A DNA stretch of 64,000 bases from Leucosporidium creatinivorum (Eukaryota; Basidiomycota; Microbotryomycetes; Leucosporidiales; Leucosporidiaceae), in the NCBI GenBank assembly GCA_001600635.1, contig BCKL01000011.1, forward strand, positions 435,383 through 499,382. Reading direction: 5' to 3'. This document shows, in pieces, positions 4,290-42,900 of this stretch (position 1 is its first letter; each line of letters opens with the position of its first letter). The notes beneath the pieces are model-generated. The model was not told the DNA's origin. It did not search any database and saw only the letters and a list, made by a program, of their open reading frames with translations. The translations under genes were made by a program, and so were the position numbers.

Positions 4290-4689
4290 ATGGGAGGGTC
4301 AGTCCGCCGAGCGAGGGTCGGGGGTTGCTGAGCTGCGCTGAACCTTTCGCATTCCCTACAGAGCATCGCTTCGATGCAGTACATCTCGCTCGCCGGCCCT
4401 CCAGACGTTCTGCGACTCCCTCGGCGCCAACTTGACTTCGGCGCTCGGCGCCTCGACTCTCGCCAGCTCCTTCACTCTACCTCCCATGCCAGCAAACTAC
4501 ACCAGAGCCTCGCATCAGCTTCGGGAGAATTCGTGTCGTCTCCCTACAGCTTTCCCTCACCTCTCCCCCTTCGCGCGCCGAGATTCCACTCTCGACTTTG
4601 GAACGGTGGAGGCGGTGCATGGAGGTGACGAGTTGCCTCGGTTGGAGGAGATCGATGGACAGGTACTTTTTCCGACTTGCTTGCTGTAA
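4290..4689 (+). CDS. Small hypothetical gene whose C-terminus matches the Doa10/SSM4 tail
   Basis: Candidate two-exon gene. ATGGGAGG is followed by a GTCAGT donor, a 64-base intron with a CTGAA branch-like site, and an exon in a GC-biased frame. The protein begins MGGASLRCSTSRSPALQTFC and includes SLGANLTSALGASTLASSFT. Its last part reads GGDELPRLEEIDGQVLFPTC, and the segment ELPRLEEID is also the C-terminus of the SSM4/Doa10 homologue encoded on the other strand near 39960-39990, in the same relative reading frame. The left arm of the inverted histone duplication begins here, so this ORF appears to be host sequence fused to a copied SSM4 3' end. It may be a chance chimera and not a working gene. 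The upstream part matches no family I know. Confidence 0.35.
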
Positions 4690-5122
4690 TATCTTCGCTT
4701 CGTTCCTCAGCGCCGTGTGATGAGCGAGAACAGCTCGGCGAAGGTTGAGTGCACCGTTGAGCTGTCGCTGCTGTGTACAGGTTCATGGCGAGGTTGCGAC
4801 AAAAGCTAGAGTACTACACGACTGAATGACGCGTGTTGCAGCTCATCAACACCACTCTCCTACGCCCAGTAGCCTCCAACTCGCGCCGTCACGTGACTTG
4901 CTCGGCTCGGACTTGTTTGCTCTCCTCGCTGTAGCTCTCTCTCGGTCATCTCTCAGCAGCAGACGATGTGTAGATGTGGTAAGAACCAGCGCTAACGAGA
5001 GCGCGTTCATGGGTTGCAAGGGTGGGTGTGATGAACTAGAAACAACAGGGTCGACGACGACACGAAATAGCGAAGGGAGGCGGAGGGTGGGGTGCTAAGC
5101 AAGAGCGGGAGCAAGCTACAGT

Positions 5123-5736
5123 TTACGAGCGCTCTCCACGGAGACGACGAGCGAGCTGGATGTCCTTGGGCTGGATGGTGACGCGCTTGGCGTGGATGGC
5201 GGCGAGGTTGGTGCTGTTTGAGGAGGGGTGGGCAGGTCAGCTACGGGTCTAGGGAGTGCAGGAGAGCAGCAGCAAGAAACTCACTCTTCGAAGAGCGAGA
5301 CGAGGTAGGCCTCGGCAGACTCCTGGAGAGCCATGACGGCCGAAGACTGGAAGCGGAGGTCGGTCTTGAAGTCCTGAGCGATCTCACGAACGAGGCGCTG
5401 GAAGCTGTGGTGTGGCAGAGTAGGGTTAGCTCTTGCGCTCGAGTGTGTAGTAGAGCAAGCGTGACATACGGGAGCTTGCGGATGAGGAGCTCNGTCGACT
5501 TTTGGTAGCGACGAATCTCACGAAGGGCGACGGTTCCAGGGCGGTAACGGTGAGGCTTCTTGACTCCACCAGCGGCGGGGGCCGACTTGCGAGCGGCCTT
5601 GGCGGCGAGCTGCTTGCGAGGAGCCTTTCCTCCGGTCGACTTGCGGGCGGTTTGCTGTTGGTTGAGAGGGAGAGGGTTAGCTCCGAGTTGAGTGATGTAG
5701 GCTGCAGTTAAGGGAGCTCACCTTGGTGCGGGCCAT
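5123..5736 (-). CDS. HHT: Histone H3 (left copy)
   Basis: Core histone H3, forming the (H3-H4)2 tetramer of the nucleosome. Four exons: MARTK; then [20 protein letters not shown] through [10 protein letters not shown]; then [20 protein letters not shown] through LVSLFED; then [20 protein letters not shown] to RRLRGERS and TAA. The protein is full length (about 136 residues), with K4, K9, K14, K27 and K36 present, HRYRPG, and Ala at the usual Cys110 position. A single N at 5493 falls on the third base of a Thr codon and does not change the residue. It is transcribed divergently from H4 across a 411-base shared promoter. An inverted partner lies beyond the assembly gap at 39128. Confidence 0.97.
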
Positions 5737-39127: not shown

Positions 39128-39498
39128 GAGCTCCTCATCCGCAAGCTCCCGTATGTCACGCTTGCTCTACTACACACTCGAGCGCAAGAGCTAACCCTAC
39201 TCTGCCACACCACAGCTTCCAGCGCCTCGTTCGTGAGATCGCTCAGGACTTCAAGACCGACCTCCGCTTCCAGTCTTCGGCCGTCATGGCTCTCCAGGAG
39301 TCTGCCGAGGCCTACCTCGTCTCGCTCTTCGAAGAGTGAGTTTCTTGCTGCTGCTCTCCTGCACTCCCTAGACCCACAGCTGACCTCGCCTTCTCCCCAT
39401 CAAACAGCACCAACCTCGCGGCCATCCACGCCAAGCGCGTCACCATCCAGCCCAAGGACATCCAGCTCGCTCGTCGTCTCCGTGGAGAGCGCTCGTAA
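39128..39498 (+). CDS. HHT: Histone H3 (right copy, 5' part in assembly gap)
   Basis: Begins at the gap with ELLIRKLP, followed by an intron and [20 protein letters not shown] through LVSLFED, a second intron, and [20 protein letters not shown] to RRLRGERS and TAA. The visible protein is identical to the left copy, while introns and the 3' region show scattered differences. It is convergent with SSM4, whose stop codon is 458 bases away. Confidence 0.95.
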
Positions 39499-39956
39499 AC
39501 TGTAGCTTGCTCCCCCTGCTCCTGCTTAGCCCACCCACCCGCCTCCCTTCGCTATTTCGTGTCGTCGTCGACCCTGTTGTTTCTAGTTCATCACACCCAC
39601 CCTTGCAACCCATGAACGCGCTCTTGTTAGCGCTGGTTCTTACCACATCTTTCACGTTGTCTGCTGCTGAGAGATGACCGAGAGAGAGCTACAGCGAGGA
39701 GAGCAAACAAGTCCGAGCCGAGCAAGTCACGTGACGGCGCGAGTTGGAGGTGACTGAGCGTAGGAGAGTGGTGTTGATGAGCTGCAACGCGCGTCATTCA
39801 GTCGTGTAGTACTCTAGCTCTTGTCGCAACCTCGCTATGAACCTCTACACAGCAGCGAGAACGGCTCATTCAACCCTTCGCCGAGCTGTTCTCGCTCATC
39901 ACACGGCGCTGAGGAACGAAGCGAGGATATTACAGCAAGCAAGTCCGATCAAGAAC

Positions 39957-42900
39957 CTATTCATCTATCTCCTCCAATCGAGGCAACTCCCCCGCATCCA
40001 CCACCTCGGGCTTCTCATAGTTCCTCAACCTTTTCTCGACCAAGAAAGACTCCTCCAACTTCCTCTGCGCCCACTTCTCTCCCATCTGCCTCCCCTTCGT
40101 CTTGGCGAGCGGTCCCAAAAGCATCCACCCGAGCCCAGCATAGTACCAAGCGATGTCACGCAAGCTCGCCGGCGACCATGGCTCGCGACTGGCGAGAGCC
40201 TTGAAGCCCGCGTAGAGGTGGGTCCAGAGGGGAGGCGTGGCGAGGAGGATGAAGAGTTGGAGGGCGATGCGCGAGATGTACCAGTTGGCAAGTCGAGCGC
40301 CTTCTCCGGCGCTGAGGACGGTGCCGGCGCGGAAGAGGACAAGCGCCGAGTCCAAGTCGACGCGCATGGGGTGAGTGCGAGGGGTAAAGTAGCGGAAGAC
40401 GCGATAGAGGACGGAGAGGCCGACGATGCCGGTCGCCCAGCAGTGGAGGAGGTAGATGGTGGGAGGCGAGTCAAGCGAGGTGGTCGACTTGGAGAGGAGA
40501 GAGAGGGGAAGATGGACGAAGGCGAGCATGGAGAAGGAGAGGAGGGTGGGGAGGATGAAGCCGACTAGCGCGACGAAGGAGGCGATCGAGGCGACGGCTT
40601 GTAGGTGCACTCGGTTGATGCGAGGCGAGTGAATCGCCGAGCGGTGGTGGACGAGGTAAGTCGCCGCCGCGAGGGTGTAGGCTCCGACGGTGATGGAGTA
40701 GAGATCATGCACTTCGTTGTGAGTGACGAACCCGACGAGGTAGCGACCGACGAGGACTGCGAAGGAGGAGCGGTCAGTCTCGGCGAGGTGGAAAGAGAAG
40801 CGTGAAGCTTACGAGGGGCGACGAGCGTTCCGCAAATGGCCAACGAGCCGATGAGCCAGAGGAGGTAGACGAAGAGCCAAATCCTCGTGCGGAAGTTGGG
40901 TGGAAGGTAGACCTGCGTAGGAGGAGTCGGCGTCATGCTCGGGCCTCGGCGCTGGTCAAAGCCAACTCACGACTCGGTAAGCGTCGCCCTTCCTCGTCGT
41001 CGCCATCTCGACCAGCTGCGCCGCAACAACCCTCGTAGCGATATCGTCGAGAGGGTGGCCCTCCTCCGTTACGCGAACGAGCATCGGTCTCTTGGGCGCG
41101 ACCCTGACGGTGTCGACGGCTGGCACTCGACCGAAGCCTCCGTCCTTCCTGAAGACGACTTCCTTAGGCGAGACGAGGGCGCCCCACTGCTCCTCATTCT
41201 CCTCGGTATCGTCCACTCCCGCACGCTTGAGCGTAAGCCTCGCATGCCAGGTGCGGCGGATGTGAGTGCCCTCCTCGGCGAGGTCGCGGTGGCCAAAGAC
41301 GAACGAGGAGAGGCGAAGGGCGTGTGCGGTGCGCTTCGTCCAGTTGAGGAGTAGCTTGCGAGCTCGTGCTCGAGGGTCGGCCGCTCGCATCGGGAGAGGA
41401 ATGATGAACTGGTAGATGATGAGGTCGACCGGGAGGGAGAAGCTGCGACTGCGAGTGTATAAAGAAGTCAGCGAGCGGTCGAGACGGAGGGGTGGTAGGC
41501 TGGCCTACACAGTCGGCCATCGAAGAGGTAAGATGCCGGCGCAGGCGTAGCGGAGGAAGAGGATATTGGCGCCGAAGGTGAAGGCGATGACGGCGCCGTA
41601 GAGCACCGCGCTCGTGGCGATCTTGCGAGCTTGCGTGCGAGAGGAGCGCTCGAGTATCTCCCTGATGGGATGGAACTCGGCAGCCTGTGGGTCTCGAATG
41701 AACCAAACGAGGCCCGGCCGAACGGCGCCACGAACCATGTCGATGGACGAGGCGAAGGCGAACATGAAGGCGGTGCCGGTAATCCAGCTGATAAAGTAGG
41801 CTGCTCGAACGAGAGGGTCAGCGACGCGGAGAGTGCAGTCGGCGAAGTCGACTCACCCGAGAAGGGCGCTCGGAGGTGGAAAGCGAGGCGACTGGCGAAG
41901 GTCGCGTTGGGGAACAGAGGGAGGGTCGCGGCGCTGAGGAGCATGCCGCACGTGCCGGGGAAGACGACGATCTGCGTACCACTAGAGATCAGCCAGTGCT
42001 CAGCGCCGGGCGGAACCAACTCACCTCGATGAAGACGAAGAGGCAGACCTTGAGCAGCGTGAGTTGCTGCTTGATGCCCTCGCGAATCACGCGGTCGACC
42101 TGTTGGCTATACTCGCTCTTCGTGATCTGGAGGTACCAGGCGCCAGCGAGCAGAGCAGCGCCGTAGCCCAGGGCGACGCAGAGGCCTCGGTGGAGGGGAT
42201 CGTCGTCCAGAGCCATACGAGTCCAGTGGTGCGCGATGGTTGTGAGGGTCCTCTTGAGCAAAGTGACAGCGACAGGTCGAGGCTCGGCCGAAGCGAACAC
42301 TGTTGCTGCGAAGGTCGAGTTGAAGGATTCGGCGAGGGCGACGATGGCGGCTTCGGTCGCATTGCTGGCGATGGTCGTGTTGTTGGTGATGGTCGTGGTC
42401 GAGGGACTGAGTGCGGTCGTGCATGTCTTTGCGAGGGCCATGGGGAGCTTGCTGCATGCCGGCACAAGTCGAGGAGCGAGCAGGCGGAAGGCGAGTCGAA
42501 CGGGGGCGGAGAGGAGGGTGAAGAGGCCGTCGAAGAGAGGGTCCGAGATGGTGCGTACGGCGCAGAGGGGCATGGTGACGAGACGGAGAGCGTTCGACTG
42601 TTGCGTAAACGGATCAGCAGAGCCATTGAGGCGAGCCCGAACCCAAAACTTACGGCTGCAAGCACTCGTCCGATCGAAAGAGGAACCCAGACTCCTCCAG
42701 CAAGGCAGAGGGAGATGAGGAGGATCATGAGGCTGCGAACGAGTAGTGGCAAGGTCAGCGGCTGCTCTCAACAGCCACGGCGTGAGTCCCAGCTCACCCA
42801 AGGTTCTGCACGAGCGTAAGAATCGAGCCTCGCATCCCGATCGCATCGAGTACGCCCTCAAAGTCCTCGAAGACGTCCTCGGCGAACGGCTCTTCATCCG

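What the first reader, a model, noticed from the sequence alone, without database searches (positions are those of the whole stretch)
4630..39989. Inverted duplication of a divergent histone H3/H4 gene pair, arms 30 kb apart
The blocks 4630-7284 and 37352-39989 are reverse complements of each other over about 2.65 kb and each holds H3 and H4. The right block joins two intact genes (PX/Ypt35-like and SSM4) at their 3' ends. The left block contains only the 3' scraps of those genes, so the left is probably a daughter insertion between unrelated genes. Having two H3/H4 pairs is usual in fungi, but here the origin and the breakpoints are visible. Such arms could also drive inversion of the 30-kb interval.
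Basis: partly seen in the sequence, partly recalled or inferred. Interest (0 to 1): 0.8.

Follow-up and report, generated by a model that had tools for sequence, protein, structure and literature searches.

The report
Inverted histone H3–H4 duplication in yeast
A 2.7-kb block carrying a histone H3–H4 gene pair was copied in reverse 30 kb away on the same chromosome of a basidiomycete yeast, and the two copies seem to have been kept alike by recombination; this is a known kind of event, but similar inverted copies lie at other histone genes of the same genome and might let the stretch between flip.

Summary
The inverted repeat is real: about 4611–7287 and 37349–40005 align as reverse complements (94.5% and 91.0% on the two sequenced sides). 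Only the last 77 residues of H3 and 52 of H4 are visible there. A single N in the left arm (5493) sits opposite the gap edge, which suggests the assembler collapsed a nearly identical core.
That the right order is ancestral is not shown: in related yeasts PX and SSM4 are not neighbours, judging by locus tags.
Beyond the finding: C13 carries two more H3–H4 pairs, inverted, and C18 two H2A–H2B pairs, inverted, both with nearby inverted fragments. A motif, CCTARGNYGAGGCA, occurs three times in each of three sequenced H3–H4 promoters, 14 times genome-wide.
Best reading: local inverted segmental duplication plus ectopic gene conversion, a new member of a known kind. Inversion of the 30-kb interval is plausible but untested.

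The parts
4611..7287 (.). Left arm (daughter copy): SSM4 3' remnant, H3 (-), shared promoter, H4 (+), PX 3' remnant
   Evidence: one N at 5493
37349..40005 (.). Right arm (parental arrangement), reverse complement of the left arm, with unsequenced core; ends approximate
38283..39127 (.). Assembly gap, 845 N, standing where the left arm has H3 exon 1 and most of exon 2, the promoter, H4 exon 1 and most of exon 2
5123..5736 (-). Histone H3, left copy; exons 5722-5736, 5470-5654, 5285-5404, 5123-5213; 136 aa
   Evidence: (PF00125, 3.3e-46)
6148..6663 (+). Histone H4, left copy; exons 6148-6213, 6277-6403, 6474-6569, 6641-6663; 103 aa
   Evidence: the PF00125 match of this protein is below the cut-off (20.2 of 26.4 bits); it is named H4 by its sequence, and its paralogs by the tblastn
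39128..39498 (+). Histone H3, right copy, visible 3' part (last 77 residues)
37983..38282 (-). Histone H4, right copy, visible 3' part (last 52 residues)
5839..5928 (+). Three copies of CCTARGNYGAGGCA (5839-5852, 5899-5912, 5915-5928) in the H3-H4 promoter
7192..7284 (-). PX remnant: 31 codons identical in protein to the right PX C-terminus, 9 nucleotide differences, all synonymous; stop 7189-7191
4611..4671 (+). SSM4 C-terminal remnant (ELPRLEEID kept, stop lost, one in-frame 3-base indel)
36212..37447 (+). PX-domain (YPT35-like) gene; approximate hand-made model, last exon from 37326, stop 37445-37447
39957..44624 (-). SSM4 / MARCHF6-like E3 ligase gene; 5' end not fully modelled, stop 39957-39959
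3451..4270 (+). Apc13-like gene flanking the left arm (Pfam Apc13p 16.5 bits, below the 22-bit cut-off: tentative)
7531..8143 (-). DUF2015 gene flanking the left arm
   Evidence: (PF09435, 1.1e-29)

Best explanation
A local, inverted segmental duplication. A 2.7-kb block running from the last codons of PX through H4, the shared promoter and H3 to the last codons of SSM4 was copied in inverted orientation into the intergenic space between two convergent genes (Apc13-like and DUF2015) 30 kb away. It carried a complete, self-contained H3-H4 transcription unit, so the copy could be kept as an extra source of H3 and H4, while the pieces of PX and SSM4 came along as passengers. Ectopic gene conversion between the arms then probably kept the core nearly identical. 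A crossover instead of a conversion would invert the 30-kb interval. Shown: the arms, the whole-looking and truncated genes, the insertion site. Inferred: near identity of the unsequenced core, conversion, use of the second copy, and the capacity to invert.
For: Arms and orientation. PX and SSM4 are found as genes only on the right, as remnants on the left. The outer junctions of the left arm lie in continuous sequence: the only Ns of the window are 5493 and 38283-39127. Neighbouring genes are convergent on both sides. Core: noncoding differences are 18 of 277 in inner introns, 42 of 654 in the middle and 31 of 313 in the outer part, yet the 248 aligned bases next to the gap on the H3 side are identical, including a 65-base intron, as are 95 on the H4 side. 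The gap opens exactly opposite the single N at 5493, a third codon position. Elsewhere in this assembly two inverted copies carry single Ns at mirrored bases (9 in the C13 H3 stretch, 6 in C18), so it marks near-identical copies that way.
Against: The core of the right arm is unsequenced, so its identity and even its gene content are inferred. The rise of divergence from inner to outer noncoding sequence is not significant (P = 0.18 outer vs inner; 0.07 outer vs middle). The PX remnant has 9 synonymous and 0 non-synonymous differences in 31 codons; if it had decayed freely since the copy, all-synonymous has P about 6e-4 under equal rates (the count depends on where homology is taken to begin: one or two codons more bring in 1 or 4 differences in non-synonymous codons). 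That suggests the donor was a functional but already diverged PX gene, or that a longer left PX gene was lost only recently. PX-SSM4 adjacency is not seen in relatives by locus tag.
Confidence: 0.72

Rival explanations
1. Staggered-break inversion. The 30-kb interval was once inverted by breaks staggered around the H4-H3 block, which leaves an inverted copy of the block at each end; a later crossover between the arms turned the interval back. Or the assembled orientation is wrong across the gapped core, and the true chromosome joins Apc13-like-block-PX and DUF2015-block-SSM4.
For: [quoted passage not shown] The link through the right arm rests on an N gap.
Against: Needs two events or a scaffolding error where one duplicative insertion suffices. 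The non-identical parts of the arms could be phased by jumping libraries, but the reads and the assembly method are not available here.
Confidence: 0.15
2. Remnant of a larger, older inverted duplication. Both PX and SSM4 were once whole on the left; the left bodies were lost recently while conversion kept the middle alike.
For: Synonymous-only differences in the PX remnant, 7 of the 9 in its first eight codons; 18 of 61 bases differ at the SSM4 end against about 6.5% of noncoding bases further in.
Against: No trace of the PX domain or of the SSM4 C-terminal part elsewhere on the left, and the flanking genes are close by. The SSM4 remnant has lost its stop and carries amino-acid changes.
Confidence: 0.12
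3. Assembly artefact: a second haplotype or contaminant copy wrongly placed in the contig.
For: The core is gapped, and single Ns mark ambiguous bases.
Against: Both outer junctions of the left arm are N-free. PX and SSM4 are not found twice as a misplaced haplotype would leave them. Of the control stretches, window 8200-18000 matches only itself and 44100-64000 has one 86-base match elsewhere, with 6 of 7 candidates scored; two further controls were not scored.
Confidence: 0.06

Closest known systems
24-kb flip/flop region of Saccharomyces chromosome XIV (PMC9731477; abstract and one Results section read)
   Same: Inverted copies of gene pairs at the ends of an interval of similar size (24 kb there, 30 kb here); there the arms are homogenised and cause repeated inversion.
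   Different: There both orientations are observed across strains and species and the arms are 4 kb and almost identical; here one assembly, a gapped core, noncoding differences of 6-10% outside it and no population data.
Inverted duplications at staggered-break inversions in Drosophila (PMC7584159; passages read)
   Same: Inverted copies of a breakpoint segment flank an interval.
   Different: That mechanism should leave one whole and one cut gene at each end (my reasoning); here both whole genes are at one end.
Divergent H3-H4 pair with bidirectional promoter of Rhodosporidium toruloides (P9/P9R, PMC6599526; passages read)
   Same: Same class of yeasts (recalled); H3 and H4 driven by one bidirectional promoter.
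   Different: Here three sequenced pairs and probably a fourth, arranged as inverted couples. Copy number in R. toruloides was not examined.
Two H3-H4 loci of Saccharomyces cerevisiae (HHT1-HHF1, HHT2-HHF2; recalled, not looked up)
   Same: More than one divergent H3-H4 pair.
   Different: There on different chromosomes; here in cis and inverted.

Membership tests
Divergent H3-H4 gene pair | Complete H3 and H4 reading apart from a shared promoter region | tested here: met
   Left copy: spliced 136-aa H3 and 103-aa H4 on opposite strands; transcription itself not tested
Divergent H3-H4 gene pair | The same for the right copy | tested here: inconclusive
   Only the 3' parts visible; core is 845 N
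Inverted segmental duplication | Reverse-complement copies beyond chance, including non-gene flanks, with cut genes at the daughter site | tested here: met
Inverted-repeat flip/flop region with concerted evolution | Arms more alike within a genome than expected (homogenised) | tested here: inconclusive
   Identical bases next to the gap and an apparently collapsed core, but the gradient is not significant
Inverted-repeat flip/flop region with concerted evolution | Both orientations of the interval occur | not testable with these tools
   One assembly; no reads or strains
Staggered-break inversion | One whole and one truncated neighbour at each end | tested here: not met
   Right end has both whole, left end both truncated in the assembled orientation; the orientation itself rests on a gapped arm
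Transposon-borne duplication | Element or RNA gene at the arm ends | tested here: inconclusive
   Apart from the two arms, the listed matches of the block elsewhere lie within its histone part, query 623-2166 of 2901; no tRNA or Rfam family at the arms; 20 flanking open frames show no transposase in Pfam, the rest of the window was not tested

The most novel reading that the evidence does not exclude
In this lineage the histone gene pairs are recurrent sources of inverted cis duplication, perhaps because they are transcribed hard in S phase and forks switch template there. The resulting inverted couples are kept alike by conversion and act as switches that flip tens of kilobases of chromosome, a flip/flop system driven by essential genes.
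Probability: 0.2. Interest if true: 0.65.

Novelty: new member of a known kind. Interest (0 to 1): 0.42.

Why it matters
Inverted, homogenised copies of essential genes create a standing risk, or a standing opportunity, of inverting the DNA between them. A genome with several such couples would let one ask whether highly transcribed S-phase genes seed inverted duplications. It also gives a cautious lesson: the most interesting 870 bases of this repeat are exactly those the assembly could not resolve. The three-fold promoter motif offers a testable candidate element for H3–H4 genes in this group of yeasts.

Tried and rejected
Full hidden PX or SSM4 paralogs on the left: I first thought so because the PX remnant keeps its protein sequence; frame-by-frame comparison and genome searches with the PX domain and the SSM4 C-terminal part found none. 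An in-frame fusion of the SSM4 tail to an upstream gene (open frame 4342–4686): dropped because the Apc13-like gene ends at 4270. Substitution rates on a C13 arm ORF were dropped because the two open frames begin in different frames. The idea of a significant divergence gradient was weakened by my own count. Outgroup gene order could be judged only from locus-tag numbers and contig lengths, because no fungal genomes are searchable here; in JL201 SSM4 lies on a 6,528-base contig and no PX was listed, so it says nothing. Eight literature searches listed no title on inverted histone couples in basidiomycete yeasts; only the open library was searched, and only listings were seen apart from the three papers cited.
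Full report
The window is G000:C11:435383-499382 of a 27.7-Mb, 63-contig assembly. A 719-aa open frame in it is 72% identical to a Leucosporidium creatinivorum protein, 70% to an unnamed one, and 41% or less to the other seven hits, of Microbotryomycetes and Sporobolomyces. So the organism is a basidiomycete yeast near Leucosporidium.

The inverted repeat is there. Self-BLAST at E <= 1e-10 finds two off-diagonal matches, both inverted: 4630–5492 with 39989–39128 at 94.5% and 6364–7286 with 38282–37348 at 91.0%. 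Global alignment takes homology to about 4611 and 7287. Between the two matches the right arm is N from 38283 to 39127, and the left arm has a single N at 5493, exactly opposite the gap edge.

The left arm encodes a complete H3 (minus strand) and H4 (plus strand), each with three introns. The right arm shows only the last 77 residues of H3 and the last 52 of H4. The N at 5493 falls on the third base of a threonine codon.

Direction. Beside the right arm PX (plus strand, stop 37445–37447) and SSM4 (minus strand, stop 39957–39959) are convergent and look whole, by hand-made and partly approximate models. In the own genome the last 283 residues of SSM4 have one match; the PX domain has its own exons, the left remnant and one 35%-identical protein on C27. 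The left arm carries 31 PX codons and about 17 SSM4 codons. It sits between a tentative Apc13-like gene ending at 4270 and a DUF2015 gene ending at 7531, also convergent. So the left is the daughter.

Outgroups. In Microbotryomycetes sp. NB124-2, SSM4 is ACM66B_002040 and PX ACM66B_002055, both listed with a 1,624,477-base contig; in JL221 SSM4 is OIO90_003053 (341,355-base contig) and PX OIO90_005676 (123,947-base contig); in Microbotryum lychnidis-dioicae PX is MVLG_03459 and SSM4 MVLG_05837. If tags follow position, PX and SSM4 are not next to one another there. The right arrangement is older than the left one, but not shown to be ancestral in the class. Leucosporidium creatinivorum was not named among the PX or SSM4 hits.

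Divergence. Noncoding differences are 18 of 277 in inner introns, 42 of 654 in the middle, 31 of 313 in the outer part (outer vs inner P = 0.18, outer vs middle P = 0.07), and 18 of 61 bases differ at the SSM4 end. Next to the gap 248 and 95 aligned bases are identical; these stretches include exons, where constraint is expected. At about 6.5% divergence a promoter of several hundred bases should differ at many places and assemble well, as the flanks did; the gap therefore suggests a nearly identical core, best explained by conversion. Mirrored single Ns in other inverted copies of this assembly (9 in the C13 H3 stretch, 6 in C18) fit that. This is inference: constraint on the promoter could contribute, and the right core is unsequenced.

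An oddity. The PX remnant differs from the right PX gene at 9 bases in 31 codons, all synonymous; 7 lie in the first eight codons, then none in 20 codons, then 2 in the last three. If the left had decayed freely at the neutral rate, all-synonymous has P about 6e-4. The sample is small and the starting point was chosen by eye: taking 32 or 33 codons adds 1 or 4 differences in non-synonymous codons. It hints that the donor PX was already diverged but working, or that a longer left PX gene was lost recently.

The wider genome. The left block also matches C13:213757-215325 (plus) and C13:280546-282134 (minus) at 84% and 83%. These are two more H3–H4 pairs in inverted orientation, at the outer ends of inverted arms of 7.4 kb at 95.7%, with 1.9 kb more at 96.8% further in. 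A solo H3 lies on C23 and a solo H4 near the start of C11. H2A–H2B pairs lie on C8 and at two places on C18, the C18 pairs about 120 kb apart and inverted. At the first C18 pair the last H2A exon and about 1 kb downstream recur inverted 4.5 kb away at 99.7%; at the second a 124-base piece spanning the start codon of H2B recurs inverted at 89.5%. The C8 pair shows no such copy in the 20 kb held (one search lists one inverted pair there, away from the histones). In the 264 kb held, 11 inverted and 2 direct repeat pieces of 80 bases or more were found. Several belong to one event, some are not at histone genes (C13:196997, C13:298927, C8:158404), and the regions were chosen for histones, so this is a lead, not a test. 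Of four control searches with window DNA away from the arms, one (8200–18000) found only itself, one (44100–64000) found one 86-base match with 6 of 7 candidates scored, and two were not scored.

Promoter motif. CCTARGNYGAGGCA was read from the aligned promoters, so its presence there is by construction. It has 14 exact matches in the genome: 9 in the three sequenced H3–H4 promoters (three each), 1 about 180 bases upstream of the solo H3 on C23, and 4 elsewhere, two of which lie in the two arms of another inverted repeat on C6. The reversed control pattern has 4 matches. The three H2A–H2B promoters have no match within two mismatches; the solo H4 has one with two mismatches. Shared descent of the promoters explains part of this; the repetition within each promoter and the solo H3 hint at function.

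Mechanism and place among known things. The simplest account is a one-step inverted duplicative insertion followed by conversion. The closest known system is the Saccharomyces flip/flop region, where homogenised 4-kb inverted repeats bearing gene pairs keep re-inverting 24 kb (PMC9731477, abstract and one section). Whether this interval flips is open. A staggered-break inversion (PMC7584159, passages) followed by re-inversion, or a scaffolding error across the gapped core, would give the same arms and cannot be excluded.

Noticed in passing
G000:C13:213325-220721 and 282574-275158 (L020-L021, L027): A larger inverted duplication (7.4 kb at 95.7%, plus 1.9 kb at 96.8% further in) with an H3-H4 pair at the outer end of each arm and a 7.7-kb N gap in one arm.
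   Followed up: partly
G000:C18:377530-378578 and 372981-371933 (L030, L031): The last exon of H2A plus about 1 kb downstream recurs inverted 4.5 kb away at 99.7%, with six mirrored single Ns.
   Followed up: partly
window 5839-5928; C13:214483-214577; C13:281317-281411; C23:311480: Promoter motif CCTARGNYGAGGCA, three copies in each of three sequenced H3-H4 promoters and one near the solo H3; 14 exact matches in 27.7 Mb.
   Followed up: partly
G000:C6:475001-476064 and 496364-495293 (L039, L040): An inverted repeat of about 1.07 kb at 93.9%, about 19 kb apart, met through the motif search; it starts at the edge of the fetched piece, so it may be longer; gene content not examined.
   Followed up: no
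G000:C11:655248-658345 and 707648-710739 (L017, L018): Two divergent H3-like genes on opposite strands, about 52 kb apart, on the same contig as the window; possibly H3 variants.
   Followed up: no
window 45916-46021: tRNA gene found by Rfam (47.2 bits) but not by ARAGORN with the bacterial code, 106 bases long, so probably with an intron.
   Followed up: no
window 7261-7284: First eight codons of the left PX remnant carry 7 synonymous and no non-synonymous differences from the right PX gene, next to 20 identical codons: unexplained.
   Followed up: partly
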